Below, in pieces: positions 3,789 through 23,683 of a stretch of DNA of 31,218 nucleotides (positions within the stretch are counted from its first letter, which is position 1; each line of letters opens with the position of its first letter). Position numbers and translations under genes: made by a program. A model generated the notes under the pieces. The model was not told the origin of the DNA, searched no databases, and saw only the letters and a program-made list of their open reading frames with translations. Location of the stretch: assembly GCF_000720115.1 (NCBI RefSeq), contig NZ_JOIR01000054.1:1-31218 (forward strand). Direction: 5' to 3'. Origin of the DNA: Streptomyces sp. NRRL F-2580. GTDB lineage: Bacteria > Actinomycetota > Actinomycetes > Streptomycetales > Streptomycetaceae.

Positions 3789-3819
3789 CCTGGGGTCCCC
3801 GGACGGAGTCTGGAGGAGG
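3789..3819 (+). repeat. Short palindromic element, copy A
   Basis: This copy carries the core GGACGGAGTC (3801-3810), flanked on the left by CCTGGGGTCCCC and on the right by TGGAGGAGG. It interrupts the kinase remnant between the codons for ADGEP and ALPVTAEC, shifting the frame. Its flanks are more degenerate than those of the other two copies. Confidence 0.75.
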
Positions 3820-4026
3820 CTCGCCGTCCGCGTACGCGCTCAGGCCCGGGGCCTCCGGGCGCGGTGGACGCTCACCTTCGGGTGGCTCAGGTACCTGCCC
3901 TTGTAGACCTGGGGAAAGACCGTGAGCAGGGTGGCCCGGCCGCAGTCGCCGACCACGGTCACGTCGAAGAGCCCGTCGTCCGGGACGGCGTCCGCGCAGA
4001 TCCGCATGCCACCGCCGTAGGACGAT

Positions 4027-4060
4027 CCTCCCCCCGACTCCGTCCGGGGGGACCCCCAGG
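4027..4060 (-). repeat. Short palindromic element, copy B (inverted)
   Basis: This is the same element in the opposite orientation, with core GACTCCGTCC at 4036-4045 on the plus strand. The arms are six C and six G, and an ACCCCCAGG tail follows. It replaces roughly 12 bases expected to encode the GNGP part of a GNGPSYGGGMR motif in the kinase remnant. The net length change is about +25 bases, which breaks the frame. Confidence 0.78.
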
Positions 4061-4399
4061 ACGGCCACGAGCGTCGCCTCGGTCTCGATCACCGGGCCGT
4101 CGTCGAGGGTGATCCGGTACGGGAACGGCCGGAAGGCGACCGGCTCCGCGATCATCGCCAGGTCGTACTAGAACCGGCCGGCCGGCAGCCGCATCGCGGT
4201 GGTGAGCCGCGCCGGCGCGTCCTCGGCGCCGGTGCCCACCACCGTCCGTACGGAGAAGCCGGCCGCCCGCAACGCGGAAGCGGCCGGCCGCGCGGCGTGC
4301 GCGCCCCGGCCGCGTCCGGCGGTGGGATTGACGAAGAGGGCGACCTCAGAGCTCACCCACCCCGGGGGCACCTCCCGGCGGTGGCCGGGGGCGTACCTG

Positions 4400-5356
4400 T
4401 CAGGTGGCGTCGTCGTAACCGTTGATCCGCTGGCGTCCGCCGTCGGCCTGGCCGGGCAGCGCGGCGGGGGCGGGCACCGACTCCAGCGCGCCGATCGGCG
4501 CCGGGGTCAGGTCCAGCTCGGAGGCCTCGTCGTCGCTCAGACCCGCGTCGGGGTCGTTGCGCCGGCGCCTGCGGTCGTTGAGCAGACAGATGCCGAGGGC
4601 CAGGAAGTACAGGGCCACGATCGGCAGGGCCAGCGCGAGCATGGTCGGGGGGTCACCTGTGGGGGTGGCGAAGGCGGCGAAGATCGTGATGCCGAGGACC
4701 ATGCCCCGCCACCAGCCGCCGAGCCGCTTGCCGGTGAGCACACCGGTGAAGTTCAGGAGGATCAGCAGGAGCGGCAGCTCGAAGGCCAGGCCGAACACGA
4801 TCACCATGCGGGTGACCAGGTCGAGGTAGTCGTCGACCGGCAGCAGATTGCGCGCGTGGTCGGGCGTGAACTCCAGCATGATCGTCGCGGTCTGCGGGAG
4901 GATCTTGTACGCGAGCACCGCGCCCACGCCGAACAGCGGCGCGCCGACCGCGACGAAGCTCCGCGCGTACTTCTTCTCGTGGCTGTGCAGCCCCGGCGCG
5001 GCGAACGCCCACAGCTGGTACAGCCACACCGGCGCGGACAGCACCACGCCGGCCGTCAGCGAGACCTTCAGGGCGATCGAGAACGCCGAGATGAGACCGT
5101 TCACGGTCATGTCGGCGCAGGGGTGGCCGTTGCGCTGGGTCACCACACCGTTCCTGCAGCCGACGGAGTCGAGCATCGGCTTCAAGAGGAAGTTGATGAT
5201 GTCCCGGTAGAAGAAGGCCGAGATGACGGTGATCACCAGGATCGCCAGGACCGACTTCAGCAGACGGTTTCGCAGCTCACGCAGGTGCTCGACAAGAGGC
5301 ATCCGCCCTTCGGCGTCCTTGTCCGCTTTCCCCTGCTTGCGGGCAGACTTGAGCAA
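4400..5356 (-). CDS. tatC: Sec-independent protein translocase TatC
   Basis: TatC is the multispanning receptor of the twin-arginine pathway and binds the RR signal peptide at the membrane. The 318-residue protein shows the family hallmarks: HLRELRNRL near residue 24-32, whose Glu27 matches the signal-binding Glu of E. coli TatC, and PGLHSHEKKY, whose Glu127 matches the second binding Glu. Six hydrophobic segments and the ATPTGDP loop before the last helices are present. The C-terminal tail of about 60 residues after RRRRR is hydrophilic and rich in A and P, as is common in Streptomyces. The start is TTG at 5356, supported by AAGGGA about six bases upstream; the next ATG would remove 18 residues of a conserved basic N-terminus. 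tatA lies 48 bases upstream in the same direction, so the two form one unit. Confidence 0.95.
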   Translation of the reverse strand: MLKSARKQGKADKDAEGRMPLVEHLRELRNRLLKSVLAILVITVISAFFYRDIINFLLKPMLDSVGCRNGVVTQRNGHPCADMTVNGLISAFSIALKVSLTAGVVLSAPVWLYQLWAFAAPGLHSHEKKYARSFVAVGAPLFGVGAVLAYKILPQTATIMLEFTPDHARNLLPVDDYLDLVTRMVIVFGLAFELPLLLILLNFTGVLTGKRLGGWWRGMVLGITIFAAFATPTGDPPTMLALALPIVALYFLALGICLLNDRRRRRNDPDAGLSDDEASELDLTPAPIGALESVPAPAALPGQADGGRQRINGYDDAT

Positions 5357-5404
5357 CCCACGTCCCTTGTCTCGTTGCAGATGACTGGCGCGTTACGGCG
5401 TGCG

Positions 5405-5695
5405 TCAGCCCTGGGCGGCGCGGTTCGGCTCGCTGACCGGGCGGGAGCTGGTGACGTCACCGGGCGCGGCCTGGATGGTGCGCGGGGCGACGGGCTGCTG
5501 CGCGGACTGGTCCGCGGCGGTCGCGGTGGCCGCGTCCTCGGCCTCGCCGTCCTTCTTCATGGCCTTGGCCTCGCTCTTGAGGATGCGGGCCGACTTGCCG
5601 AGGGAGCGGGCCATGTCAGGAAGCTTCTTGGCGCCGAACAGCAGGATGATCACGCCGACGATGACGAGGATTTCCCAACCCCTGAGGTTGCCCAT
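5405..5695 (-). CDS. tatA: Twin-arginine translocase subunit TatA
   Basis: TatA polymerises to form the transport path recruited by TatC. The 96-residue protein has one N-terminal membrane helix (WEILVIVGVIILLFG, residues about 7-21). It is followed by the hinge FGAKKLPDMARSLG, an amphipathic helix and a disordered A/Q/P-rich tail, all typical of the family. The ATG at 5695 has AAAAGGAAG about seven bases upstream; a longer frame upstream is not family-like. TatB is not in the window, which fits actinobacteria where tatB is usually elsewhere. It is probably transcribed from the promoter-like array at 5764-5794. Confidence 0.95.
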   Translation of the reverse strand: MGNLRGWEILVIVGVIILLFGAKKLPDMARSLGKSARILKSEAKAMKKDGEAEDAATATAADQSAQQPVAPRTIQAAPGDVTSSRPVSEPNRAAQG

Positions 5696-5763
5696 AGAAA
5701 TCTTCCTTTTCTCCGAGGTTCGCAGCGCACCGGTACGGGCGCCTGGGACTTTCTCTACCGAGG

Positions 5764-5794
5764 ATCGTAACCCCCGGGGGTTAACGCCCGGCAA
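5764..5794 (-). promoter_or_regulatory. Candidate tatA promoter with long spacer and palindrome
   Basis: On the minus strand a -35-like TTGCCG (5789-5794) and a -10-like TACGAT (5764-5769) are separated by 19 bases. A perfect 16-base palindrome, TAACCCCCGGGGGTTA (5768-5783), fills most of the spacer and touches the -10. Transcription would begin about 60 bases before tatA. A 19-bp spacer carrying a palindrome is the arrangement used by MerR-type activators. Activity is not shown by sequence alone. Confidence 0.4.
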
Positions 5795-5863
5795 TCCCCC
5801 GGCGTACCCCGTCTTGCGTCCTGGCCGGTTGTCAATCCCCTCGTCACACGCCCGACTCGTTCG

Positions 5864-6064
5864 CTACGGTCGCACGCCGCGACCCGCCCTGGCCAGGTCC
5901 GCGGCCGCCCGCTCCAGATCGCCCGAGGCATCGGTGATCCGGCGGCTGGCCTGCGCGACCTGCGCGGAGAGTCTGCGCACCTCCGCGTAGACCCGTACGG
6001 CCAGCACGGCGAGCACGGCGACTCCGAGGAGGACCAGGGCAATTGCGAACATCGGCCACAGCAT
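5864..6064 (-). CDS. Small single-pass membrane protein, unknown function
   Basis: This 66-residue protein starts MLWPMFAIALVLLGVAVLAV and has one membrane helix at about residues 4-26. A helical, heptad-like cytoplasmic tail (VYAEVRRLSAQVAQASRRIT, then DLERAAADLARAGRG) follows. Small proteins of this shape lie upstream of tatA in Streptomyces, but I know no function. The ATG at 6064 is used; a second ATG four codons on is possible. It follows the zinc-ribbon gene after 26 bases in the same direction, so it is likely at the end of the pafBC unit. A coiled-coil membrane scaffold role would be a guess. Confidence 0.7.
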   Translation of the reverse strand: MLWPMFAIALVLLGVAVLAVLAVRVYAEVRRLSAQVAQASRRITDASGDLERAAADLARAGRGVRP

Positions 6065-6090
6065 GGGGCGAGCCTAGGCCACCGCCCGCC

Positions 6091-6318
6091 TCAGATGCTG
6101 CGCAGGGTGCTCACGCCCCCGCCCGTCAGCAGCTCCACAATGCGCTCACCAGCAGGTTTGCGTACGGAGGCACCGCATTCAGGACACGTGAAGGAGTAGA
6201 AGGTGGCCCGTCGGCTGCCGCCGATGGCCAGCCGCAGGGCTCCCGCGTCCAGCTCGAAACGGGCCCGGCAGTCGGGGCAGGAGGCCTTGAAGGCGACGGG
6301 CCCGGACATTGGCGACAT
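6091..6318 (-). CDS. Small zinc-ribbon protein, unknown function
   Basis: The 75-residue protein carries two cysteine pairs, CPDC at about residues 14-17 and CPEC at about 45-48, with a beta-rich stretch between them (FELDAGALRLAIGG then ATFYSFTC). This is a classic zinc ribbon that could bind nucleic acid or protein. The ATG at 6318 has GGGGAG eight bases upstream; ATG 6309 is an alternative. It begins 14 bases after the pafC stop, which suggests translation together with pafBC. No catalytic motif is visible and the function is unknown. Confidence 0.78.
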   Translation of the reverse strand: MSPMSGPVAFKASCPDCRARFELDAGALRLAIGGSRRATFYSFTCPECGASVRKPAGERIVELLTGGGVSTLRSI

Positions 6319-6332
6319 CGGCCCCGCTCCCC

Positions 6333-7301
6333 TCAGACCTGTTCCCCGTACCCCGCGAGTGCTTCTCGAGCGGCGCTCCGCGCGCTCTCCGCCAGCTCTG
6401 TGGGGGTGACGATCCGCCCCTCGCGCCCGAGCCGCAGCGCGAGCCGGCGCAGCGAAGCCGGATCCGGACTGCGCAGCGTGATCCGCAGACCTCCGTCGGC
6501 CAGCTCCTCCGCGCTGTCGTGCGGGTAGTACTCGGCGACCCAGCGCCCGCCCGGACCGACCTCGACGACGACCTCCGGGTCCTCGGCGGCCGGCTGGACC
6601 AGGCCCTCGGACAGATCGCGCGGCTCGATCGCCGGCGGCTCGGCCCGCTCGTCCAGCAGCCGGATCTCCGCCACGCGGTCGAGGCGGAAGGTGCGCCGGG
6701 CCTCGGAGAGGTGGCACCACCCCTCCATGTACGTGTGCCCCACCGCGAACAGCCGGATCGGGTCGACCTTGCGCTCGGTGAGCTCGTCCCGCGCGGGCGA
6801 GTAGTAGCGCAGCCACAGCCGCCGGCGCTCCGCGATGGCCCGGTCGACGTCGGCGAAGACCCCGCCCTCCGATTCGAAGGTCACCGACAGTCGGGAGCTG
6901 GCCCCGGCCGCCTCGCCCGCGGCCGCCTCCAGCTTGGCGGTGGCCCGCAGCAGGGCTTCCCGGTCGCTCTCCCGCAGCCCGGGCAGGGTCGCCACCGCGC
7001 GCGCGGCCACCAGCAGCGCGGTCGCCTCGTCGGCGGCGAGCCGCAGCGGCTCGGCGGTGGACTCACCCGAGGCGTCGGGGTTGCGCCACCAGATGCGCTC
7101 CCCGTCGGTGTCGATGTCGAGCAGGTCCCCGCCGCGGAAGCTGGTCCCGCACATGGGCAGCACGTCGAGGTCCGAGATCAGCTCGTCCTCGGTGATGCCG
7201 AAGGCGCGGGCGACGTCGGCGACGTGCGCCCCGGGGCGCTCGCGCAGGTACGTCACCAGGGACAGCATCCGACGGGTCTGGTCGATGGCGTTGGCAGCCA
7301 T
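6333..7301 (-). CDS. pafC: WYL-domain transcriptional regulator PafC
   Basis: PafC pairs with PafB as an activator of the LexA-independent DNA damage response in mycobacteria. The 322-residue protein has an N-terminal winged helix (about 1-60). A WYL domain from about 147 to 215 contains RRRLWLRYYSPA, GHTYMEGWCHL and TFRLDRV, and a C-terminal WCX-type domain follows. The literal WYL triplet of PafB is WCH here, as is usual for the PafC half. It follows pafB with a 110-base gap that is unusually long for this pair and holds a 15-bp tandem repeat. GGGGGAG lies about ten bases before the ATG. In this genome group the two genes are separate proteins rather than a fusion. Confidence 0.93.
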   Translation of the reverse strand: MAANAIDQTRRMLSLVTYLRERPGAHVADVARAFGITEDELISDLDVLPMCGTSFRGGDLLDIDTDGERIWWRNPDASGESTAEPLRLAADEATALLVAARAVATLPGLRESDREALLRATAKLEAAAGEAAGASSRLSVTFESEGGVFADVDRAIAERRRLWLRYYSPARDELTERKVDPIRLFAVGHTYMEGWCHLSEARRTFRLDRVAEIRLLDERAEPPAIEPRDLSEGLVQPAAEDPEVVVEVGPGGRWVAEYYPHDSAEELADGGLRITLRSPDPASLRRLALRLGREGRIVTPTELAESARSAAREALAGYGEQV

Positions 7302-7333
7302 GCTGGTACGTCTCCCCCTCAGGGCACGTCTTC

Positions 7334-7408
7334 GAATGGGGCGGTCGCGAATGCGGCGATCTGGAATGCGGCGGTCTGCGATGCGGCGGTCTCGAATGCG
7401 GCGGAACC
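7334..7408. repeat. 15-bp tandem repeat, five copies, between pafB and pafC
   Basis: Five direct units of 15 bases run from 7334 to 7408. They read GAATGGGGCGGTCGC, GAATGCGGCGATCTG, GAATGCGGCGGTCTG, CGATGCGGCGGTCTC and GAATGCGGCGGAACC. On the minus strand they encode a five-residue repeat of the type (Q/E/A)-(T/I)-A-(A/P)-(F/S). That frame is the same one as pafB beyond its TGA, and it remains open for 30 codons until TGA at 7319-7321. The repeat may be a neutral minisatellite, a read-through extension or an attenuating RNA segment. Confidence 0.85.
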
Positions 7409-7411
7409 GGT

Positions 7412-8368
7412 TCAGGCCTTGGCGACGGCCCTCAGCCGGTCCACCACGTCGGCCCGCAGGTCGGCGGGCCCGACCACGACGACGTCGGGCCCGAACTCCA
7501 CCAGCCAGGCGTCCAGCCCGTGCCCGTACGGGATCTCCAGCTCGTCCCAGCCGTCCGCGCCCTCGCAGACCGCGGTGGCCTTGGCCCGCAGCGGGTAGCC
7601 CGCCCCGGCGCGCAGCCGGATCAGCGCGGAGCGGTCCGCACTCTCCCCGGCCCAGCTCGCCACGGTCTCCCGTACGGTGACCACGTCAGGGACCTCGGCG
7701 GTGTACTCGGCCGCTCGGGACTTGACCTTGCCGGTGATCCGGGACAGCCGGAACACGCGCTCCGCACCGCGGTCGCGGTCGTAGCCGGCCAGGTACCAGT
7801 GGCCGCGCCAGCACTCCAGCGCCCACGGCTCCACCTGCCGGGTCTCGGGCCGGGCGGCGGTGGACTTGCGGTAGTCGAAGACCACCGGCCGGCGGTCCCG
7901 GCAGGCCAGCATCAGCGGCTCGAAGGCCGCCTCGTGGACCGGGATGCGCGGCTCGATGGCACTGTGCTGGCCCTCGTACGGGTCACCCGCCTCGGGCATC
8001 CCGCCCGCGCGCAGCTTCTGCAGGGCCCCGCTGGCGGCTCCCGCGAGGCGGGCCTGCTGCCAGACCTTGGCCGCCAGCCCCAGGGCGGCGGCCTCCTCGG
8101 CGTCCAGCGAGACGGGAGGCAGCCGGTTGCTGTCCCGGCGTGCCAGGTAACCGGTTTCGCCGTCCAGGTTCTCCACCGTCTCGATGACCAGACCGAGTTC
8201 GCGCAGATCGTCCTTGTCCCGCTCGAACATGCGGTTGAAGGACTCGTCGTTGCCGGCCTCCATGTAGGCCTCGATGGAGCCGCGCAACTCGCGCTTGCTC
8301 AGCGGCCGGCGGGTCCCCAGCAGACACAGCGCCAGATTCATCAGCCGCTCGGCCTTGGCAATCGCCAT
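7412..8368 (-). CDS. pafB: WYL-domain transcriptional regulator PafB
   Basis: PafB is the partner of PafC; the heterodimer activates DNA-repair genes in mycobacteria after damage, probably sensing single-stranded DNA through the WYL domains. The 318-residue protein has a winged helix at about 1-65 (ERLMNLALCLLGTRRPLSKR onward). The WYL domain spans about 147-215 and carries the literal motif HWYLAGYD at 190-197 followed by RVFRLSRI, and a C-terminal extension domain completes it. GGAAGGG lies eight bases before the ATG. It heads the run pafB-pafC-zinc ribbon-membrane protein. The frame continues for 30 codons after the TGA through the tandem repeat described separately. A possible promoter (TTGTCC, 16 bases, TACGGT) lies between the FKBP terminator and this start. 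Confidence 0.94.
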   Translation of the reverse strand: MAIAKAERLMNLALCLLGTRRPLSKRELRGSIEAYMEAGNDESFNRMFERDKDDLRELGLVIETVENLDGETGYLARRDSNRLPPVSLDAEEAAALGLAAKVWQQARLAGAASGALQKLRAGGMPEAGDPYEGQHSAIEPRIPVHEAAFEPLMLACRDRRPVVFDYRKSTAARPETRQVEPWALECWRGHWYLAGYDRDRGAERVFRLSRITGKVKSRAAEYTAEVPDVVTVRETVASWAGESADRSALIRLRAGAGYPLRAKATAVCEGADGWDELEIPYGHGLDAWLVEFGPDVVVVGPADLRADVVDRLRAVAKA

Positions 8369-8440
8369 CGACGCCCTTCCCCCGTTCTCGACACACTCGT
8401 GACCGTTGACCGTACCGCCCCGGCGGTCCCGGACAAAAGC

Positions 8441-8470
8441 GAGGGCCCCCGCCTCACGGCGGGGGCCCTC
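8441..8470 (-). terminator. Intrinsic terminator of the FKBP gene
   Basis: A perfect 13-base stem GAGGGCCCCCGCC (8441-8453) pairs with 8458-8470 around a TCAC loop. It begins 18 bases after the FKBP stop and separates that gene from the pafBC promoter region. Confidence 0.85.
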
Positions 8471-8488
8471 GGAGCGGCTGCCGGTGGA

Positions 8489-8866
8489 TCAGGCGGCCAT
8501 CAGGTCACAGACGAAGATCAGCGTCTCGCCCGGGGCGATCGCGCCGCCCGCGCCGCGGTCACCGTAGGCGAGGTGCGCCGGGATCGTCAGCTTGCGACGG
8601 CCGCCGACCTTCATGCCCGCGATGCCCTGGTCCCAGCCCGCGATGACGCGGCCGGCACCGAGCGGGAACTGCAGGGCGGAACCGCGGTTCCACGAAGCGT
8701 CGAACTCCTCGCCGGTGGAGAAGGCCACACCCACGTAGTGGACGGAGACCATGGCACCGGCCTTGGCCTCGGCGCCGTCGCCCTCCCAGATGTCCTCGAT
8801 CACGAGGTCCTTCGGGGCTTCGCCCTCGGGGAAGTCGATCTCGGGCTTCTCGAGCTTCTGGCTCAC
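8489..8866 (-). CDS. FKBP-type peptidyl-prolyl isomerase, cytosolic
   Basis: This 125-residue protein catalyses cis-trans isomerisation at proline bonds. It is a single FKBP domain with no signal peptide. The known active-site residues are in place: the Tyr of VSVHYVG, the Asp of EEFDASW, the Phe of LQFPLG, the Trp of VIAGWDQGI and the Tyr of HLAYGDRG. The start is taken as GTG 8866 because AGGAG stands seven bases upstream; an ATG at 8881 would place that ribosome site inside the gene. The two-domain FKBP lipoprotein gene lies 43 bases upstream on the same strand. The substrate is unknown. Confidence 0.93.
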   Translation of the reverse strand: MSQKLEKPEIDFPEGEAPKDLVIEDIWEGDGAEAKAGAMVSVHYVGVAFSTGEEFDASWNRGSALQFPLGAGRVIAGWDQGIAGMKVGGRRKLTIPAHLAYGDRGAGGAIAPGETLIFVCDLMAA

Positions 8867-8909
8867 GGAACTGCTCCTCATACGTACGAAACGGTCAACC
8901 GGAACAGTC

Positions 8910-9851
8910 TTACATCACGGTGAGGATGTCGAGGCTGAAGACCAGCGTCGACTTGGCCGGGATGGTGCCCTGCTCCTTGTCACCGAACGCCTGGTCCGGC
9001 GGGATGACCAGCAGGATGCGGCTGCCGACCTTCTTGCCGATCAGGCCGTCCTTCAGACCCGCGACCGAGAGCTCCTTCAGCGGCCACGTGACCGTCTGAC
9101 CGGAGGTGTACGTGCTTTCGAAGGTCTTGTCGTCCTTCCACGTCTTGCCGTTGAACTTCACCACGACGGAGTCGGTGTCCTTGACCACCGCGCCGTCGCC
9201 CTCCAGGACGTAGTTCGAGACCAGCTTGGCCGGCTCGGCGGTGTCCTTCGGGACGGCCACGGAGACCTCCTGGCCGTCCGTGTTCGTGCCGACCTTGGGC
9301 AGGTCCTTGTTGTCCTGGGCAACCTCCTTGCCCGTGGCCGAGGCCGGGACGGTGGCGCCCTTGACGATGTCCACGACGAAGACCAGCGTGGCGTTCGGCT
9401 TGATCTTCGGCTCCGAGCCCTGCGCCCCGTAACCGAGGTCCGGCGGGATCACGAGCTCGACACGGCTGCCGACCTTCTGGCCCTCCAGGCCCTGGTCCCA
9501 GCCCTTGATGACGGCGCCGGCACCGAGGGTCAGGTCGAACGGCGCGGGCCGGCCGAAGCTCTGGTCGAACGGCTCCTTGCCGTCCCACACCTGGCCGAGG
9601 TAGTTGACCTGCGCGATGTCGTTCTTCTTCAGCACCTGCCCGGTGCCCTCGCTGATGGTCACCACCTTCAGCTCCTTGGGCGGCGCGCCCTTCCCCTTCG
9701 ACAGGGTGGGCGTCTCCCCGAACTTGGCACCCTTGGTGATCGCGGGCGCCCCGTTCTTCATCTGGGCGGAGTCGGAGCCGCTGTCGTCGCCACACGCTGC
9801 TGTCGTCAGCAGCAGAAGGGGTACGACAAGCAGGCCGGCAAGTCGGCGCAC
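8910..9851 (-). CDS. FKBP-type isomerase lipoprotein with two FKBP domains
   Basis: The 313-residue precursor has a lipoprotein signal MRRLAGLLVVPLLLLTTAAC with the lipid-modified Cys at residue 20, so it is anchored outside the membrane. Domain 1 (about 60-165) keeps the isomerase residues: QVNYLG, PFDQSF, PFDLTLG, VIKGWDQGL and LGYGAQG. Domain 2 (about 215-313) is FKBP-like, but the matching positions read VVKFNG, TFESTY, VAGLKDGL and QAFGDK. Thus Tyr is replaced by Phe, Asp by Glu, Trp by Leu and Tyr by Phe. Domain 2 is therefore probably a chaperone or binding domain. The gene lies between pafA and the small FKBP; all are read leftward. The ATG at 9851 follows a weak ribosome site (GAGGAAC). 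Confidence 0.93.
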   Translation of the reverse strand: MRRLAGLLVVPLLLLTTAACGDDSGSDSAQMKNGAPAITKGAKFGETPTLSKGKGAPPKELKVVTISEGTGQVLKKNDIAQVNYLGQVWDGKEPFDQSFGRPAPFDLTLGAGAVIKGWDQGLEGQKVGSRVELVIPPDLGYGAQGSEPKIKPNATLVFVVDIVKGATVPASATGKEVAQDNKDLPKVGTNTDGQEVSVAVPKDTAEPAKLVSNYVLEGDGAVVKDTDSVVVKFNGKTWKDDKTFESTYTSGQTVTWPLKELSVAGLKDGLIGKKVGSRILLVIPPDQAFGDKEQGTIPAKSTLVFSLDILTVM

Positions 9852-9907
9852 GGGTTCCTCAGATCTCAGACGGCAAGGCGGTCGCCCGCCACTCTAAGCC
9901 GTGCACA

Positions 9908-9936
9908 GGGCCCCGTACGAGAGACGTACGGGGCCC
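9908..9936 (-). terminator. Intrinsic terminator of pafA
   Basis: A perfect 12-base stem GGGCCCCGTACG (9908-9919) pairs with 9925-9936 around AGAGA. It lies about 30 bases after the pafA stop and separates pafA from the FKBP lipoprotein gene. Confidence 0.85.
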
Positions 9937-9966
9937 CGGTAAGGAGTGCGATGTCACATTGCGGAC

Positions 9967-11328: not shown

Positions 11329-11334
11329 GACTGA

Positions 11335-11362
11335 ACATTACGCCTTCTGCCCTCTTCTGAAA
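11335..11362 (-). promoter_or_regulatory. Candidate leaderless promoter of pafA
   Basis: On the minus strand TTTCAG (11357-11362) and TAATGT (11335-11340) are spaced by 16 bases. The -10-like hexamer ends six bases before the ATG, so transcription would start at or next to the start codon. Confidence 0.45.
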
Positions 11363-11455
11363 CCGGGTTCGGGAGCGCCGTTTCGATCAGTTCCCCCGAG
11401 CGAGCCCGCCGAACCGCCGCCGAACAGGCCCCCCGACCGGCGTGGCGCCCCCGCG

Positions 11456-16140: not shown

Positions 16141-16182
16141 TCACCCTCCCCTGCGAGCATCACCTTCAATTCGAAGGCGAAG

Positions 16183-16395: not shown

Positions 16396-16430
16396 GTCTA
16401 CCTCACCCCGCTCGGTCGCACGCTCACGTC

Positions 16431-16500
16431 GAGAGATCCCGGGATTCGGGATCTCTCAAGATCAGACCCTATGTCGGACCCTACTAGGAGGGTCCGACAT
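16431..16500 (-). promoter_or_regulatory. Two perfect inverted repeats upstream of pup
   Basis: GAGAGATCCC (16431-16440) pairs with GGGATCTCTC (16448-16457), and ATGTCGGACCCT (16471-16482) pairs with AGGGTCCGACAT (16489-16500). A weaker GGGGCC/GGCCCC hairpin (16550-16567) lies just after the dop stop. The 16471-16500 arm pair could end dop transcription, but no T-run follows on the minus strand. The sites may instead be operators or leader RNA structures of the pup operon, whose start is 36 bases further on. Confidence 0.6.
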
Positions 16501-16578
16501 TCGTCCCCGCACTTTCACAACGTCCGGTTCTCCACATGATTCCCGGACCGGGGCCCTTTCAGGCCCCCATGGCACCGC

Positions 16579-18090
16579 TCACTGCCCCGAAAGCACCCGC
16601 ACCAGGTCCTCCGCCGTGCGACAGCGGTCCAGGAGCTCCTTGACGTGGTTCCGGGTCCCCCGCAGGGGTTCCAGCGTCGGGACCCGCTGGAGCGAGTCCC
16701 GGCCGGGAAGGTCGAAGATCACCGAGTCCCAGGAGGCCGCGGCCACGTCGTCCGCGTACTGCTCCAGGCAGCGGCCGCGGAAGTAGGCCCGGGTGTCCTC
16801 CGGGGGCTTGCTCTGGGCCCGCTCGACAGCCGGCTCCTCCACCAGTCGCTTCATCTTGCCCCGGGCCACCAGGCGGTTGTACAGGCCCTTCTCGGGCCGT
16901 ACGTCCGAGTACTGGAGGTCCACCAGGTGCAGCCGCGCCGCGTCCCAGCCCAGCCCGTCCCGGCGCCGGTAGCCCTCCAGGATCTCCCGCTTGGCGATCC
17001 AGTCCAGCTCCCCCGACAGGCTCATCGGGTCGCTCTCCAGCCGGCCCAGCACGTCCTCCCAGCGGACCAGCACGTCCTTGGTCTGCTCGTCCGCCTCGGA
17101 GCCGAAACGCTCCTCGACGTACTTGCGGGCCAGCTCGAAGTACTCCATCTGCAGTTGCACCGCGGTGAGTGTCCGGCCGCTGCGCAGCGTGATGAGGTGC
17201 TTCAGGTCGGGGTCGTGGGAGACCTGGTGGAGGGTGCGTACTGGCTGGTCGACGGCGAGGTCGACGTTGATGAACCCGTCCTCGATCATGGACAGGACCA
17301 GTGCGGTCGTGCCGAGTTTCAGGTACGTGGAGATCTCGGAGAGGTTCGCGTCGCCGATGATCACGTGCAGCCGGCGGTACTTCTCCGCGTCGGAGTGCGG
17401 CTCGTCGCGGGTGTTGATGATGGGCCGCTTGAGGGTGGTCTCCAGGCCGACCTCGACCTCGAAGTAGTCCGCTCGCTGGCTGATCTGGAAGCCGTGCTCG
17501 CGGCCGTCCTGGCCGATGCCGACGCGGCCGGCGCCGGTCACGACCTGCCGGGAGACGAAGAAGGGGGTCAGGTGGCGCACGATCTCCGAGAAGGGGGTCT
17601 CCCGCTTCATCAGGTAGTTCTCGTGCGTGCCGTAGGAGGCGCCCTTGTTGTCGGTGTTGTTCTTGTAGAGGTGGATCGGCTGGGCGCCGGGCAGCTGGGC
17701 CGCCCGTACGGCGGCCTCGGCCATGATCCGCTCGCCGGCCTTGTCCCAGAGGACGGCGTCGAGCGGGTTGGTGATCTCCGGCGAGCTGTATTCGGGGTGC
17801 GCGTGGTCGACGTAGAGCCGTGCGCCGTTGGTGAGGATGACGTTGGCGAGGCCGATGTCCTCGTCGGTCAGCTGGCTGTTGTCGGCGGCCTCGCGGGCGA
17901 GGTCGAAGCCGCGGGCGTCCCGCAGCGGATTCTCCTCCTCGAAGTCCCAGCGGGCGCGTCGCGCCCGGTGCATCGCCGCCGCGTAGGCGTTGACGATCTG
18001 GGACGAGGTGAGCATGGCATTGGCGTTCGGGTGCCCCGGGACGGAGATCCCGTACTCCGTCTCGATCCCCATTACTCGCCGTACGGTCAT
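16579..18090 (-). CDS. dop: Depupylase/Pup deamidase Dop
   Basis: Dop cleaves the isopeptide bond between Pup and substrates and, where Pup ends in Gln, deamidates it. The 503-residue protein is a PafA paralogue of the glutamine synthetase-like fold. [10 protein letters not shown] supplies Glu10, and [15 protein letters not shown] supplies Asp95, the catalytic aspartate. [19 protein letters not shown] and [20 protein letters not shown] complete the site. The insertion [20 protein letters not shown] (about residues 52-71) is the Dop loop that separates it from PafA. ATG 18090 has GGAGG five bases upstream. The gene stands alone between the arc terminator and the hairpins before pup. With a GGE Pup its main job here should be depupylation. 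Confidence 0.97.
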
Positions 18091-18275
18091 GCGGCCCTCC
18101 TTGCCCGGCGGCGCTCCCCTTCGGGAGCGGCGCTCAAGTACCGCTGGTGCTCCGGTGCGTGTGCCTGTGCGGTGCCCGTCCCCGCACTGCGCGACCGGCG
18201 GTACGGAAGAGCCTAGAACCACTGCGCGCTCGTGGGGAGATCATTTCCGTCATTGAATCCGCCCTTTCACCGGCT

Positions 18276-18313
18276 GAAAAGCGGCCGGTAAAGCGGTCGG
18301 GTAAAGCAGTCGG
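18276..18313. repeat. Three imperfect 13-bp direct repeats upstream of dop
   Basis: GAAAAGCGGCCG (18276-18287), GTAAAGCGGTCGG (18288-18300) and GTAAAGCAGTCGG (18301-18313) follow one another directly and run into the arc terminator stem. They lie about 190 bases before the dop start. A regulatory role is possible, but chance duplication cannot be excluded. The rest of the dop upstream region (18091-18275) shows one small hairpin at 18112-18129 and no clear promoter. Confidence 0.5.
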
Positions 18314-18345
18314 CTGCGGATGCCCGGGGAGGGCACCCGCAGCCG
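18311..18345 (-). terminator. Intrinsic terminator of arc
   Basis: A 15-base stem with one mismatch is formed by CGGCTGCGGATGCCC (18311-18325) and GGGCACCCGCAGCCG (18331-18345) around GGGGA. It starts seven bases after the arc stop. Confidence 0.85.
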
Positions 18346-18352
18346 CTCCGCT

Positions 18353-20119
18353 TCAGAGGTACTGACCGGTGTTCGCCACCGTGTCGATGGAGCGTCCGGT
18401 GTCCGCGCCTTGCTTTCCGGTGACGAGGGTGCGGATGAATACGATCCGCTCTCCCTTCTTTCCGGAGATTCGGGCCCAGTCGTCCGGGTTGGTGGTGTTG
18501 GGCAGGTCCTCGTTCTCCTTGAACTCGTCCACGCACGCCTGGAGGAGGTGGGAGACCCGGAGGCCCTTCTGGTCGTGCTCGAGGAAGGCCTTGATCGCCA
18601 TCTTCTTCGCACGGTCCACGATGTTCTGGATCATCGCGCCCGAGTTGAAGTCCTTGAAGTAGAGGACTTCCTTGTCGCCGTTGGCGTACGTGACCTCGAG
18701 GAAGCGGTTCTCCTCGGTTTCGGCGTACATCTGCTCGACGACGGTCTGGATCATGCTGTGGACGGTGCCGTCCTTGGAGCCCTGGTGCTCGGACAGGTCG
18801 TCCGTGTGCAGGGGCAGCGAGGCCTTGAGGTACTTCGCGAAGATGTCCTTCGCGGCCTCGGCGTCCGGGCGCTCGATCTTGATCTTCACGTCGAGGCGGC
18901 CGGGGCGCAGGATGGCGGGGTCGATCATGTCCTCGCGGTTGGAGGCGCCGATGACGATGACGTTCTCCAGGCCTTCCACGCCGTCGATCTCGGCGAGCAG
19001 CTGGGGGACGATGGTGTTCTCCACGTCCGAGCTGACTCCGGATCCGCGGGTGCGGAAGAGGGATTCCATCTCGTCGAAGAAGACGATGACGGGGGTGCCC
19101 TCGCTCGCCTTCTCCCGGGCACGCTGGAAGACGAGGCGGATGTGCCGCTCGGTCTCGCCGACGTACTTGTTGAGGAGTTCGGGGCCCTTGATGTTCAGGA
19201 AGTAGGACTTCCCGGCGGGCTGGCCGGTCACCTCGGCGACCTTCTTGGCAAGGGAGTTGGCGACGGCCTTGGCGATGAGCGTCTTGCCGCAGCCGGGCGG
19301 GCCGTAGAGCAGGATGCCCTTCGGGGGCCGCAGTTCGTGTTCCTTGAACAGGTCCGGGTAGAGGTACGGGAGCTCGACCGCGTCGCGGATCAGCTCGATC
19401 TGGTCGCCCAGGCCACCGATCTTGTCGTAGTCGATGTCGGGGACCTCTTCGAGGACGAGTTCCTCGACCTCGCTCTTGGGGACGACCTCGTAGACGTAGC
19501 CGGAGCGGGGTTCGAGCAGGAGGGCGTCGCCGGGGCGGATGGTGATGTCCAGGAGCGGCTCGGCGAGCCTCACCACCCTCTCCTCGTCGGTGTGCCCGAC
19601 GACCAGGGCGCGCTCGCCGTCCTCGAGGATCTCCTTGAGGGTGACGATGTCCCCGGCCCGCTCGAATTCCATGGCCTCGACCACGTTGAGGGCCTCGTTG
19701 AGCATGACCTCCTGGCCGCGCCGGAGGTCTTCCGGGTCGACGCTGGGGCTGACGTTCACGCGGAGCTTTCGGCCTCCGGTGAAGATGTCGACGGTGCCGT
19801 CCTCGTTGGCCTGCAGGAAGACACCGAAGCCGGCCGGCGGCTGGGCGAGCCGGTCGACTTCTTCCTTGAGGGCCACGATCTGGTCCCGGGCCTCACGGAG
19901 GGTATTCGCGAGTCGTTCGTTCTGTGCGGATACGCCGGCAAGATTTGTCTGCAGCTCGACGATCCGCTCTTCGAGAATCCTCGTGTGTCGCGGAGAGTCG
20001 GCGAGCTTGCGTCGCAGGACGGCGATTTCCTGCTCGAGATAGGCAACCTGGCCGGCGGGGTCCTCAGACCCTCGCCCGGGCCGGATGCCGCGGTTGATGT
20101 CGTCGTCGTGGGCTGCCAC
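18353..20119 (-). CDS. arc: Proteasome-associated AAA ATPase ARC (Mpa)
   Basis: ARC is the hexameric unfoldase that captures pupylated proteins and threads them into the 20S core. The 588-residue protein has an N-terminal coiled coil (about 21-93) that binds Pup. Tandem OB-fold domains follow (about 95-215), then one AAA domain with Walker A GPPGCGKT (273-280), pore loop KYVGE (about 318-322), Walker B VFFDE (346-350) and LRPGRLD. The C-terminus is TGQYL, the docking tail that opens the proteasome gate. GTG 20119 is chosen because GGAGG lies eight bases upstream; an in-frame TTG at 20137 would put that site inside the gene. It is a single-gene unit divergent from the ferredoxin gene. Confidence 0.97.
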
Positions 20120-20157
20120 GGTCCTCACCTCCTCCAAGGGGAGCTGGACGCTTCCTG

Positions 20158-20185
20158 ACCCTACCTGGGCTGGTGGTGATTGAAA
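20158..20185 (-). promoter_or_regulatory. Candidate arc promoter
   Basis: On the minus strand TTTCAA (20180-20185) and TAGGGT (20158-20163) are spaced by 16 bases. This gives a leader of about 30 bases that contains the GGAGG ribosome site. The 200 bases further on, before the ferredoxin start, have no other clear site. Confidence 0.4.
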
Positions 20186-20383
20186 CCCCTAGATCACAAA
20201 GACGGTAGAGGTGTGTCCGATCTTCACCCTTGCGTACTCCCTCACGCCAAGGAAATACCCACCCATCAAACTCGGGAAGCGGCCGGTTGTAAGGTCGAAC
20301 TGTTCAACACCCGTCAGGGCTCGCGCGACTTGCTGCGGGTTGTGACCGGGATGGATCACTCAGCGCAGGGAACGGCAGGAGAT

Positions 20384-20704
20384 ATGACCGTGCAGCACGA
20401 GGCTCCGACGGGCGCGGCCGGTGAGGCCGGCGAGCCGCTTGAGGTCTGGATCGACCAGGACCTCTGCACCGGGGACGGCATCTGTGCGCAGTACGCGCCG
20501 GAGGTGTTCGAGCTGGACATCGATGGTCTGGCGTATGTGAAGAGCCCTGAGGACGAGCTGCTCCAGGACGCGGGGGCGACCACTCCGGTTCCGCTGACGC
20601 TGCTCCAGGACGTGGTCGACTCGGCGAAGGAATGCCCGGGGGACTGTATTCACGTAAGGCGCGTTTCGGACAGGGTGGAAGTCTTCGGTCCTGACGCCGA
20701 GTGA
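20384..20704 (+). CDS. Single-cluster [3Fe-4S]-type ferredoxin
   Basis: The 106-residue protein carries the cluster motif DLCTGDGICAQYAPEVF, where the two Cys are five residues apart and the middle ligand is replaced by Asp. The third ligand is in AKECPGDCIHVRR. This is the pattern of 3Fe-4S ferredoxins that donate electrons to cytochromes P450 and similar enzymes. A second Cys in CPGDC is extra. ATG 20384 has AGGAG just upstream; an upstream in-frame extension is not ferredoxin-like. No redox partner is visible in the window. The gene is divergent from arc and ends four bases before the stop of the convergent gene at 20709. Confidence 0.9.
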   Translation: MTVQHEAPTGAAGEAGEPLEVWIDQDLCTGDGICAQYAPEVFELDIDGLAYVKSPEDELLQDAGATTPVPLTLLQDVVDSAKECPGDCIHVRRVSDRVEVFGPDAE

Positions 20705-20708
20705 CGTT

Positions 20709-21305
20709 TCAAACACTCCGGGCGGCTGAGTCCGTCAGCTCTTGGCGGAATTTTCCGTCGCTCCAGCGCCACTTGGCGAGCTGCTTCGTGTCGGGGCAGC
20801 AGCGCGGTACGCCGGGTGCGGAGTAGCCGAGGAGCGTGGCGGTGACGACGCGGTCGCGCACGGTCAGTTCCGTGGCGGTCTGTCGTTTTCCGGTGTCGAG
20901 GAGGGTGGCGACGACGCGGGGGCGGGCGCCTTCGGTGCGGTCCTGGGTGAGGACGTAGATCGCGTGGGGCGGGGTGCCGGAGCCGGCTTCGCAGCGGACG
21001 GCGGCGACGGTCTCGGGGCGGGCGTCGCCGTCGAGGTCGCCCTGGGCGGTGGCCGTGACGGTCTGGGGGGCGCCGTTGCAGTCGAGGGGGTAGGTGACGG
21101 CCGCGGCGTCGGGAGCGGTGGCCTGGGGGCCGTTCGCGGTGGGCTCCGGCGTGGCGGCGGGGATGCCGGTGGCCGGCTCTACGAGTCCCGCTGTGGCTAT
21201 GACGGCGGCCATGGCGGTGGCCGTGGCGAGCCAGTGGAGGGGCCTGGCCAGGCTGTGCGCCAGGGTGTCCGGAGTCGGCGTCAGCTCGGCGGGGCTGTGC
21301 AGCAC
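20709..21305 (-). CDS. Membrane-anchored or secreted protein, unknown function
   Basis: The 198-residue protein has one hydrophobic N-terminal segment (WLATATAMAAVIATAGLV, about 25-42), a P/A/T-rich linker, and an extracellular domain. That domain contains VTYPLDCNGAPQTVTA, GDLDGDARPETVAAVRCEAG and a C-terminal PRCCPDTKQLAKWRWSDGKF. The Cys pair and the W-x-W-x-D-G-K-F end resemble LppP/LprE-type exported domains, but this is from memory and unproven. GTG 21305 has AGGAG nine bases upstream. The frame is open further upstream into the trmI terminator, but that extension encodes only hairpin sequence. It is convergent with the ferredoxin gene. Confidence 0.72.
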   Translation of the reverse strand: MLHSPAELTPTPDTLAHSLARPLHWLATATAMAAVIATAGLVEPATGIPAATPEPTANGPQATAPDAAAVTYPLDCNGAPQTVTATAQGDLDGDARPETVAAVRCEAGSGTPPHAIYVLTQDRTEGARPRVVATLLDTGKRQTATELTVRDRVVTATLLGYSAPGVPRCCPDTKQLAKWRWSDGKFRQELTDSAARSV

Positions 21306-21433
21306 GCGGGGTGTCTCCTGTGCGAAGGGTGACGGGGAGCCAGCATCGTGCCATACCTCACACGGAGGTGGAACGGCTGGGTCCGCTCCTGTTGGTTCCC
21401 GGGCGGGACGGGGGTCGGCACGCGGACAACGAA

Positions 21434-21487
21434 AAGGCGCTGTGGCGCAGTTCCCGGTCGGTCCGGGGAACTGCGCCACAGCGCCTT
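21434..21487 (-). terminator. Strong intrinsic terminator of trmI (22-bp perfect stem)
   Basis: The arms 21434-21455 and 21466-21487 are perfect complements of 22 bases around a 10-base loop. On the minus strand the stem is followed by TTCG after two closing Ts, giving a short T-run. It starts 35 bases after the trmI stop and shields the downstream gene. Confidence 0.9.
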
Positions 21488-21522
21488 CGTGTTGGGTCGG
21501 CGGTGCGGTGACGCGGTGCGGG

Positions 21523-22419
21523 TTACGCGGAGCGGTCGCTGCCGGGGCCGTCGTAGTCCTCGCCGTAGGCGCCCTTGGCGGGGCGGCGGCGGCGCATGGG
21601 GGGCTCGACGCCGTCCGCGAGGCGGCGGGCGGTGACGAGGAAGCCGGTGTGGCCGATCATGCGGTGGTCCGGGCGGACGGCCAGGCCTTCGACGTGCCAG
21701 TTGCGGATCATCGATTCCCAGGGCTGCGGCTCGGCGAAGCAGCCGATCTCGCGGATGGACTCGACGGTCTTGGACAGCTGGGTGGTGGTGGCCACGTAGC
21801 AGCAGAGGATGCCGCCGGGGACGAGTGCCTTGGAGACGGCCTCGAGGCACTCCCAGGGGGCGAGCATGTCGAGGATGACGCGGTCGACGTCGGTGTCGGA
21901 CAGGTTGTCCTGGAGGTCGCCGACGGTCAGCTGCCAGGCCGGGTGGGGGCCGCCGAAGTAGCGTTCCACGTTGGCGGTGGCGATCTCGGCGAAGTCCGCG
22001 CGGCGCTCGTAGCTGTGGAGCATGCCCTGGTCGCCGATGGCGCGCAGCAGGAAGCTGCTGAGGGAGCCGGAGCCGACACCTGCTTCCACGACGCGGGCGC
22101 CGGGGAAGATGTCGGCGAAGGCCAGGATCTGGCCGGCGTCCTTGGGGTAGACCACGGCGGCGCCGCGGGGCATGGACAGGACATAGTCGGGGAGCAGGGG
22201 ACGCAGCGCGAGGTAGGCGACGTTGCCCGTGGTACGGACAACACTGCCCTCGGGGGCACCGATCAGCTCGTCGTGGGGGAAGGAACCCTTGTGGGTGTGG
22301 AAATTCTTCCCGGCTTCGAGCGTGAACGTGTAGTGGCGGCCCTTGGGGTCGGTGAGCTGAACCTGGTCCCCGACCTCGAAGGGCCCGCGTCGGCGGGCGG
22401 CACCGGTCGGTTCGGACAT
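21523..22419 (-). CDS. trmI: tRNA (adenine-58-N1)-methyltransferase TrmI
   Basis: TrmI methylates N1 of A58 in the T-loop of tRNA using S-adenosylmethionine. The 298-residue protein has the N-terminal beta domain (VGDQVQLTDPKGRHYTFTLE). The Rossmann methyltransferase fold follows, with motif I VVEAGVGSGSLSSFLLRAIG and the post-motif VDRVILDMLAPWE. A basic tail ends the protein. ATG 22419 has no Shine-Dalgarno, and a TACACT hexamer ends six bases upstream, so a leaderless message is possible. The M50 protease stop is only 18 bases upstream, so the gene may also be read from that promoter. Mycobacteria have the same gene in the same neighbourhood. Confidence 0.95.
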   Translation of the reverse strand: MSEPTGAARRRGPFEVGDQVQLTDPKGRHYTFTLEAGKNFHTHKGSFPHDELIGAPEGSVVRTTGNVAYLALRPLLPDYVLSMPRGAAVVYPKDAGQILAFADIFPGARVVEAGVGSGSLSSFLLRAIGDQGMLHSYERRADFAEIATANVERYFGGPHPAWQLTVGDLQDNLSDTDVDRVILDMLAPWECLEAVSKALVPGGILCCYVATTTQLSKTVESIREIGCFAEPQPWESMIRNWHVEGLAVRPDHRMIGHTGFLVTARRLADGVEPPMRRRRPAKGAYGEDYDGPGSDRSA

Positions 22420-22437
22420 GTGACCAGTGTATTGGCT

Positions 22438-23637
22438 TCAGGACTGGGGCCGTGCCATGGCCTTCACGAAGGCCTTTTCGACGTCGAGGGTGGACAGGAC
22501 GCCGTAGACGGCGCCGTCTGGTTCGAGGACGAGGTACTCGGTGGCGGGGGTGGCGCGGAGGCGTTCGAGGAGTTCCTCGCCGGTGAGTTCCGCGGAAACC
22601 TTCATGCCGTCGGTGAGGTCCTGGGCGAGGGTGCTGACGGCGACCCAGGGGCGGCGGTGTTCGGGGACGGCGGCGATGGCGCTTTCGCGGACGATGGCGG
22701 TGGGGTCGCCGTGGCCGTCGACGACGACGAGGGCGCGGGCGCCGGCTTCGTTGGCGCGGCGGAGGGCTTCGGAGAGGGGGGTGGCGTTCTCGACGGGGAT
22801 GGCGCGCCGGGTGAGGGCGCGGGCGCGCAGTTCGGGGAGGTGTGCGCGCAGGCGGGCCATGCGCAGGCTGTTGCCGGCTCCGGTCCAGATGATGGCGGCG
22901 AGGATGGCGGCGAGCAGCGCGTCCATGACGGTGTTCATCCCGCCGATCTCCTGGGTGCGGTTGCCGAGGAGTCCGGTGTGGGTGAGCAGGGGCAGGCCGA
23001 GGAGGACGGCGATGGCGAGGCCGCGGCCGACCCAGGCGGCGGCGATGGTGCCGGCCATGGGTTTGCCGGTGATGCCCCAGATGACGGCGCGGAGCATGCG
23101 GCCGCCGTCGAGGGGGAGGCCGGGGAGCAGGTTGAAGGCGGCGACGAGGAGGTTGGAGATCATCAGGCCGGCGAGGAGGACGCCGGGGACGCTGGCCGGT
23201 TCGACGGCTTTCATGCCGAGGTGGAAGGCGCCGGCGAGGAGGAGGGAGAGGAGGGGGCCGACGAAGGCGAGGACGAATTCGCGGCCGGGGGTCTCGGATT
23301 CCTTTTCGATCTCGGAGACTCCGCCGAAGAACTGGAGCTGGATGCGGCGCACGGGGAGTTTGAAGCGGAGGGCCGCGACGGTGTGCGCGAGTTCGTGGAC
23401 GAGGACGGAGGCGTAGAAGGCGACGGCGAAGAAGAGGGAGACGAGGTAGCGGACGGGTCCGAGGTCGGGCAGGATGCGGTCGAGCTGGTCGCCGAAGACC
23501 CAGGTGATGAGGGCGGCGACGAGGAACCAGCTGGGCGAGACGTAGACGGGCACGCCGAAGGGGCGGCCCATGAGGAGTCCGCCGCCCGGTCCTGAGCGCC
23601 GGCCCGCGCGCTCGCCGGTTTCGTCGGTGTCTGCCAC
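22438..23637 (-). CDS. Site-2-type M50 metalloprotease with two CBS domains
   Basis: The 399-residue integral membrane protease has the zinc motif VLVHELAHTV and the second metal motif NLLPGLPLDGGRML. The first lies about 70 residues into the membrane domain, as in family M50B. Two CBS domains occupy the C-terminal third (about 270-395: AIPVENATPLSEALRRANEA, then LVVVDGHGDP, then LVLEPDGAVYGVLSTLDVEK). Such proteases cut membrane-bound substrates, and CBS domains bind adenine nucleotides. GTG 23637 has AAGGA six bases upstream. The upstream frame continues through a palindromic repeat and into the divergent nuclease gene, so it is not used. The substrate is unknown. Confidence 0.92.
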   Translation of the reverse strand: MADTDETGERAGRRSGPGGGLLMGRPFGVPVYVSPSWFLVAALITWVFGDQLDRILPDLGPVRYLVSLFFAVAFYASVLVHELAHTVAALRFKLPVRRIQLQFFGGVSEIEKESETPGREFVLAFVGPLLSLLLAGAFHLGMKAVEPASVPGVLLAGLMISNLLVAAFNLLPGLPLDGGRMLRAVIWGITGKPMAGTIAAAWVGRGLAIAVLLGLPLLTHTGLLGNRTQEIGGMNTVMDALLAAILAAIIWTGAGNSLRMARLRAHLPELRARALTRRAIPVENATPLSEALRRANEAGARALVVVDGHGDPTAIVRESAIAAVPEHRRPWVAVSTLAQDLTDGMKVSAELTGEELLERLRATPATEYLVLEPDGAVYGVLSTLDVEKAFVKAMARPQS

Positions 23638-23655
23638 GGCTGTCCTTCGTTCCTC

Positions 23656-23683
23656 GGGTTTCCCCCGGACGGAGTCTGGGGGA
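23656..23683 (+). repeat. Short palindromic element, copy C (intergenic)
   Basis: The core GGACGGAGTC (23667-23676) is flanked by CCCCC on the left and TGGGGG on the right. The arms pair over nine bases with one G-T, around a GGA loop. It lies 19 bases before the M50 protease start in the divergent promoter region shared with the nuclease gene. Confidence 0.8.

What the first reader, a model, noticed from the sequence alone, without database searches (positions are those of the whole stretch)
3789..23683. A short palindromic element in three copies, both orientations
The 10-base core GGACGGAGTC, flanked by C-rich and G-rich arms that pair with each other, occurs at 3801-3810 (+), 4036-4045 (-) and 23667-23676 (+). 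Copies A and B align over about 30 bases despite being inverted. Two copies break the kinase frame at points where the parent sequence can be reconstructed on both sides, so they look inserted rather than ancestral. The third is intergenic, next to a promoter. A small, non-coding, structured, mobile-looking repeat fits best (REP- or MITE-like). I cannot name it.
Basis: partly seen in the sequence, partly recalled or inferred. Interest (0 to 1): 0.72.

Follow-up and report, generated by a model that had tools for sequence, protein, structure and literature searches.

The report
Tiny hopping hairpins in Streptomyces genomes
A 31-base hairpin-forming DNA snippet has spread to dozens of places in this soil bacterium and its relatives, swapping out a few bases at each landing site studied, and the enzyme that moves it has not been identified.

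Summary
The three copies belong to a dispersed hairpin repeat, consensus TGGGGGTCCCCCCGGACGRAGTCYGGGGGAG (31 bp). Own genome: 73 core matches at up to 2 mismatches, against 8 for the reversed pattern. One relative has 41 copies, 26 letter-identical. In a class sample it occurs in 27 of 40 same-genus genomes and 0 of 354 others. Related elements share its ends and C-rich arm but have other stems that still pair, mostly with C-GNA-G or C-GNNA-G loops. Copies are insertions: 15 of 15 aligned relatives with the kinase lack copies A and B. Insertion replaces bases: typically 31 in, 4 out, net +27, which keeps a reading frame; no target duplication was seen. A fourth, related element lies at 4363-4392. 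It fails two REP tests: no constant GT[AG]G foot, and no Y1 transposase in 9 of 12 high-copy genomes, the host among them. It lacks the target duplication of a MITE. Best explanation: a Streptomyces-specific, non-autonomous, REP-like hairpin element moved by an unidentified enzyme.

The parts
3791..3818 (+). Copy A, decayed 28-bp copy of the element inside the kinase remnant (strand opposite to the gene)
   Evidence: Absent from 15 of 15 aligned relatives that carry the kinase; AGCG at the empty site in most of them; net +23
4028..4058 (-). Copy B, full-length 31-bp element (one substitution, G where the consensus has Y) inside the kinase remnant
   Evidence: Absent from 15 of 15 aligned relatives; GGCAACG, conserved in most of them, replaced by C plus 31 bp, net +25
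23654..23683 (+). Copy C, hairpin intact, 5' prefix degraded to TCGGGTTT; intergenic between an M50 peptidase gene and a PDDEXK nuclease gene
   Evidence: Exact core match; not seen in the 7 relatives aligned (of 24 other loci fetched), whose intergenic DNA is diverged
4363..4392 (+). Copy D, a related element with another stem (CGGGGGCACCTCCCGGCGGTGGCCGGGGGC), between the kinase remnant and tatC
   Evidence: Family pattern hit; the relatives aligned there have no such sequence, though some have other hairpins or elements at this boundary
3735..4356 (-). Host gene: decayed YegS/diacylglycerol-kinase-like gene, about 300 bp missing near 4200 (ends inferred from the alignment)
   Evidence: Intact orthologue in L032 has DAGK_cat and YegS_C; 308 bases of L032 against 4 in the window between BLAST pieces; stops in the frame tried
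4400..5356 (-). tatC, intact neighbour
   Evidence: Pfam TatC, E 7e-64
22438..23637 (-). M50 peptidase gene (start codon inferred); copy C lies 17-46 bp upstream
   Evidence: Pfam Peptidase_M50, E 3e-21

Best explanation
The three copies (and the related one at 4363-4392) belong to a Streptomyces family of about 30-45 bp non-autonomous mobile elements: 5' prefix TGGGGG-YM, a hairpin whose stem varies but keeps pairing, a GNA or GNNA loop closed by C-G in most, and a 3' end GGGGGA(G/T). Shown: copies lie in sites that are empty in relatives, in both orientations, in unrelated sequences, mostly between genes, sometimes inside genes without breaking the frame, and inside other repeats. Shown at the resolved sites: insertion is a replacement, typically 4 target bases out and 31 in, with no target duplication. 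Shown: some genomes hold a homogeneous variant of their own, which points to recent spread. Inferred: the hairpin is recognised as folded single-stranded DNA by an enzyme acting in trans, which copies or moves it and joins it at short CC-RGCG-like or palindromic targets. The enzyme is not identified; a resident Y1 (IS200/RAYT) transposase is not found in the host genome. Inferred: the decaying kinase gene kept insertions because selection there was relaxed.
For: Copy number against reversed-pattern controls: 73 against 8 in the own genome; 41, 16, 11, 16, 8 and 11 near-full-length matches against 0 in six relatives, 26 of the 41 in G078 identical. Empty orthologous sites: kinase 15 of 15 aligned; a coding gene of G012, where 13 of 13 aligned relatives lack exactly 27 columns (13 of 19 other loci fetched were aligned); a coding gene of G078, +27 against its nearest relative and 24-30 columns against nine more diverged ones. 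Host-repeat sites (paralogous, not orthologous): of 50 distinct R1 sites 31 read GGCG and 1 AGCG where 12 carry a 31-bp element of one of two stem types; R2: 5 of 6 read CAGCG, 1 has C plus 31 bp. Stems in 30 distinct members picked: summed inner-stem energy -79.4, shuffles mean -26.8, best of 200 -43.7; 24 of 30 loops C-GNA-G or C-GNNA-G. Genome-specific variants: GGGGGAT in G251 and GTCCTGGGGGA in G242, ten uniform GGCCGAAGGC copies in G506. Placement: 84 of 109 copies noncoding on both sides, 8 in frame inside genes, 2 frame-shifting, 15 with one coding-like side. Matches on 10 Streptomyces plasmids, 2 of them exact, one of these inside an annotated CDS in an open frame.
Against: No mobilising gene was found: PF01797 in 6 of 24 genomes, 3 of 12 high-copy and 3 of 12 low-copy, not in the host; PF00078 in 7 of 12 high-copy and 3 of 12 low-copy genomes, but not in the richest, G078. 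Only these two families were searched. Replacement is not constant (A +23, B +25; about 2-7 bases lost). Filled R1 sites may in part have multiplied as composites. The sameness of the ends in the wider family is partly built into the search pattern. A replication-strand bias appears in G078 (11 with, 30 against the fork, p 0.004) but not in G242 (20 with, 13 against, p 0.30). Folding of A and B alone is not better than shuffles. No strain-level polymorphism was available.
Confidence: 0.62

Rival explanations
1. Repair capture: short hairpin DNA fragments are joined into chromosome breaks by end joining or template switching; the few bases lost are trimming at the break.
For: Small target losses of variable size; neither transposase family searched explains the copies.
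Against: The edges are constant over dozens of unrelated sites, and the same 4-base replacement recurs at R1 sites with two stem types; random capture would give ragged ends.
Confidence: 0.15
2. Reverse transcription of a stable RNA hairpin and insertion of the copy.
For: Small target deletions are known for target-primed reverse transcription (recalled); constant ends fit an RNA copy; PF00078 is in 7 of 12 high-copy against 3 of 12 low-copy genomes, the host included.
Against: The genome with most copies, G078, and G002, G008, G113 and G144 have no PF00078 match.
Confidence: 0.08
3. Classical REP/REPIN moved by a RAYT (TnpA-REP).
For: Size, imperfect hairpin, mostly intergenic habit, genome-specific dominant variants.
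Against: No constant GT[AG]G foot: the base before TGGGGG is G in 17 of 65 exact copies. PF01797 absent from 9 of 12 high-copy genomes including the host. Around 10 Y1 loci a loose family pattern gave 4 hits in 2 loci, none with the family's ends intact, against 10 hits in 87 kb of background loci.
Confidence: 0.06
4. MITE of a DDE insertion sequence.
For: Short, non-coding, dispersed, both orientations.
Against: No target duplication at the sites resolved (A, B, R1, R2, L114, L133); bases are lost instead. The palindrome is the element itself rather than terminal repeats around a spacer.
Confidence: 0.03
5. Not mobile: terminator or regulatory hairpins that arose or were kept for function, homogenised by gene conversion.
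For: Mostly noncoding places; GC-rich hairpin.
Against: Insertions into coding genes that are empty in relatives and into other repeats; no terminator-like T-run at copy C; 31 bp is short for homologous conversion (recalled).
Confidence: 0.06

Closest known systems
REP sequences / REPINs with RAYT (TnpA-REP) transposases (PMC2817692 and PMC6006769, passages; PMC3116915, start of abstract in a search listing)
   Same: Short imperfect palindromes, high copy, mainly intergenic, variants with preserved pairing; PMC6006769 reports REPs inside tnpA-REP genes that do not disrupt the frame
   Different: No constant GT[AG]G foot, no Y1 transposase in 9 of 12 high-copy genomes, ends TGGGGG/GGGGGA, bases lost at the target
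CGTC-tagged repeats and Rickettsia RPEs (PMC3733652, passages)
   Same: Palindromic repeats; CGTC repeats lack a dedicated transposase; some such repeats lie inside genes
   Different: No CGTC tag at the ends; found only in one genus in my class sample; replacement of target bases. 'Streptomyces' does not occur in that paper's main text (0 hits)
MITEs (recalled)
   Same: Short, non-autonomous, dispersed
   Different: No target duplication; the whole element is the palindrome
Repetitive hairpin-forming elements of sponge mitochondria (PMC2800124, title and start of abstract in a listing)
   Same: Invading short hairpins in intergenic DNA
   Different: Organelle genomes of animals; no sequence relation was tested

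Membership tests
REP (GTAG-type) | 20-40 bp imperfect palindrome in many copies | tested here: met
REP (GTAG-type) | GT[AG]G tetranucleotide at the foot of the hairpin | tested here: not met
   Of 65 distinct exact copies, G precedes TGGGGG (giving GTGG) in 17; the hairpin foot is preceded by the constant TGGGGGTM
REP (GTAG-type) | Cognate RAYT / Y1 transposase in the genome, flanked by the repeats | tested here: not met
   PF01797 absent from 9 of 12 high-copy genomes, the host among them; no intact family member around the 10 Y1 loci. The host is a draft of 156 contigs rated 100% complete
CGTC-tagged repeat / RPE | CGTC at one end | tested here: not met
   Ends of the copies printed
MITE | Target-site duplication | tested here: not met
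   Bases lost, not duplicated, at A, B, R1, R2, L114, L133
MITE | Terminal inverted repeats shared with an autonomous insertion sequence | tested here: inconclusive
   No autonomous partner was seen, but only PF01797 and PF00078 were searched
Mobile element in general | Empty orthologous sites | tested here: met
   15 of 15 aligned for A and B, 13 of 13 aligned for L114
Mobile element in general | Observed movement or strain polymorphism | not testable with these tools
   The genome search holds one genome per species

The most novel reading that the evidence does not exclude
Streptomyces hosts its own class of mobile DNA hairpins that is not built on the REP/RAYT plan: an unknown nuclease-ligase recognises the folded TGGGGG-hairpin-GGGGGA strand and swaps it for about 4 target bases, so that each canonical event adds 27 bp (nine codons) and can settle inside genes as an in-frame peptide, the consensus being free of stops in all six frames.
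Probability: 0.3. Interest if true: 0.85.

Novelty: new variant of a known kind. Interest (0 to 1): 0.62.

Why it matters
If right, an intensively sequenced antibiotic-producing genus carries a whole family of mobile hairpins whose mover is unknown. The replacement rule gives a precise footprint by which the enzyme can be hunted. The copies would explain some small in-frame insertions, broken genes and repetitive intergenic hairpins that affect assembly, annotation and transcript-end analysis in Streptomyces.

Tried and rejected
Chance: rejected by reversed-pattern controls and resampling. RAYT/IS200: and the loci check speak against it. Reverse transcriptase: present in 7 of 12 high-copy and 3 of 12 low-copy genomes but absent from the richest. 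Known RNA family: no Rfam match in the window at gathering thresholds. Phage spread: no match in 50,697 phage records at E 0.1, no exact match in viral contigs. Replication-strand bias: present in G078, not repeated in G242; dropped as a general claim. Position relative to genes: 41 tandem, 22 convergent, 13 divergent, 12 within genes, 5 undetermined; not strong enough to build on. The first coding scan used a 1-mismatch core that lets in chance matches; it was replaced, whose codon model is rough (10% of true coding pieces score below 0.22, threshold 0.25), so in-gene copies are undercounted; L133, coding by its relatives, was missed by it. In one search seven of 16 relatives were left out by a strand slip of my script; they were aligned. 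One of the 16, L047, keeps only the first part of the kinase and is not in the 15. Order-level loci were not aligned. The class sample held no genomes of the same order outside the genus, so the genus limit is untested at that distance; some of its 27 genomes have only weak, 3-mismatch matches. Literature: ten searches of the held open-access library (several listings were capped) showed no description of this family in what was listed; the core string was sought in full text (25 papers hold it, 20 listed, none on Streptomyces repeats by title) and the second stem type (0 papers). Subscription papers are not covered.
Full report
What was checked. The core GGACGGAGTC is at the three stated places and nowhere else in the window at 0 mismatches. 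The bare 10-mer would not be remarkable, but with its arms it is: 3 in the window, 0 in each of 300 first-order Markov resamples, and 73 in the 8.45-Mb genome at up to 2 mismatches against 8 for the reversed pattern; 20 of the 73 are exact. Among 246 genomes of the genus, 209 have at least one match at up to 1 mismatch, with strong differences in number: 48 in G078, 42 in the host, 37 in G251, 27 in G242, and 0-2 in many. The reversed control is mostly 0-1 per genome and 5 at most, so low counts in a genome are not secure.

The unit. Aligned flanks give a 31-bp unit TGGGGGTCCCCCCGGACGRAGTCYGGGGGAG with sharp edges. Full-length searches at up to 3 mismatches find 41, 16, 11, 16, 8 and 11 copies in G078, G251, G242, G002, G008 and G012, and 0 reversed controls in all six; 26 of the 41 in G078 are letter-identical. 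Many copies in G251 end in GGGGGAT, and G242 has a variant with GTCCTGGGGGA; G506 has ten uniform copies with the stem GGCC-GAA-GGC. Of 65 distinct exact copies in the fetched loci, the base before the unit is C in 34, G in 17, A in 11 and T in 3, and the base after GGGGGA is G in 57 and T in 8.

The wider family. A looser pattern (TGGGGG, a C-rich arm and GGGGGA fixed, the middle free) gives 34, 91, 49, 30 and 11 matches in G000, G078, G242, G002 and G251, with 0-1 controls (a few sites count twice because two ends fit, and the listing is cut for the later genomes). The likeness of the ends is therefore partly set by the pattern; what is not set by it is the middle. Thirty distinct members that I picked were folded as DNA: their inner stems differ but keep pairing (summed energy -79.4, shuffles mean -26.8, best of 200 shuffles -43.7), and 24 of 30 have a C-GNA-G or C-GNNA-G loop. 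Such loops are known as unusually stable in single-stranded DNA (recalled). A fourth window element, at 4363-4392, is of this wider family.

Insertion, not ancestry. The gene around A and B is a remnant of a YegS/diacylglycerol-kinase-like gene: an intact orthologue has DAGK_cat and YegS_C. Fifteen of 15 aligned same-genus relatives that carry it lack A and B. At A most relatives read AGCG where the window has the element (net +23); at B the mostly conserved GGCAACG is replaced (net +25). The remnant also lacks about 300 bp near 4200. Copy C is not seen in the 7 relatives aligned there, but that intergenic DNA is diverged. Two further coding sites: in G012 a copy adds exactly 27 bp against 13 of 13 aligned relatives (19 other loci were fetched), and in G078 one adds 27 bp against its nearest relative, 24-30 columns against nine diverged ones.

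The replacement rule. Many copies sit inside other repeats. Among 573 kb of fetched loci (mostly chosen because they hold elements, so proportions are biased), 50 distinct R1 sites show GGCG in 31, AGCG in 1, a 31-bp element in 12 (two stem types), a 32- and a 29-bp element in one each, and other sequence in 4; 6 R2 sites show CAGCG in 5 and C plus 31 bp in 1; at R3/R4 sites (27 in all) filled and empty forms differ by a loss of about 2-6 bases. So the usual event is 31 in, 4 out, +27, without duplication of the target. R1 and R2 look noncoding, so +27 there is not a product of selection on a frame. These are paralogous, not orthologous, comparisons, and amplification of filled R1 repeats as composites is not excluded.

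Where copies live. Of 109 distinct full-length copies (up to 4 mismatches) in the fetched loci, 84 are noncoding on both sides, 15 have one coding-like side, 8 lie in frame within a gene and 2 shift a frame, one of these being window copy B (a rough codon model that misses some coding sites). The consensus has no stop in any of its six frames (read directly from the sequence). An exact copy on a Streptomyces plasmid lies in an annotated CDS, in an open frame. Ten of 72,556 plasmid records match at E 0.1, all Streptomyces, two of them exactly; no phage record does, and no viral contig has an exact match. In the class sample 27 of 40 genomes of the genus and 0 of 354 others match; genomes of the same order were not in that draw.

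How it may work. The precise edges, homogeneous genome-specific variants and empty sites point to a mobile element. The covarying stem with stable DNA loops suggests recognition of the folded strand, as for REPs. But no Y1 transposase is found in 9 of 12 high-copy genomes, the host among them (it is found in the other 3, and in 3 of 12 low-copy genomes). Around the 10 Y1 loci no intact member of the family is seen (4 loose hits in 2 loci; background 10 in 87 kb). A reverse transcriptase is commoner in high-copy genomes (7 of 12 against 3 of 12) but absent from the richest. Lagging-strand bias is seen in G078 but not in G242. The mover is therefore unidentified; an enzyme acting in trans with a 4-base replacement is my best reading, end-joining capture the main rival.

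Comparison with the known. REPs carry GT[AG]G at the foot and a cognate RAYT (PMC2817692 and PMC6006769, passages read); both features were tested and not met. CGTC-tagged repeats lack a dedicated transposase too (PMC3733652, passages) but have another tag, and 'Streptomyces' does not occur in that paper's main text. PMC1590033 (passages) mentions Streptomyces only in its reference list. PMC4681348 (passages) reports that some abundant short transcripts of S. coelicolor and E. coli map to palindromic sequences; the passages name no such Streptomyces family. Ten searches of the held library gave no description of this family in what was listed; that is not proof that none exists.

Verdict. It works like a REP, fails two defining tests of that family, and is best filed as a new variant of the known kind 'short palindromic mobile repeat'.

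Noticed in passing
L027 1500-1660; L094 1380-1540; L088 1500-1650: Tandem arrays of the element with a spacer of about 33-35 bp (units of 64-66 bp) in three genomes; the spacers of L027 and L094 share an AATGTYGCCT motif.
   Followed up: no
G078:C1, all 41 copies: The copies lie between 2.25 and 7.03 Mb of an 8.64-Mb contig, as if kept out of the chromosome arms; listed G242 copies run from 0.42 to 7.76 of 8.53 Mb.
   Followed up: partly
L002, L004, L124 and others, flanks of copies: A second, longer Streptomyces repeat (CAGCCCCGCCGGCGTTTGAGGCGCGGGGTCCGGGGCGGAGCCCCG) is a frequent landing site; its own nature was not studied.
   Followed up: partly
window 4195-4210: About 300 bp of the kinase gene are missing here compared with relatives, with no element at the junction.
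   Followed up: no
L035 about 2335; L047 1462-1633: Relatives have their own elements at the kinase-tatC boundary; in L047 (G025) only the first part of the kinase remains, so this gene decays, and the boundary is hit, more than once.
   Followed up: partly
G114: 24 reverse-transcriptase domain matches in one genome of the genus, several with identical scores.
   Followed up: no
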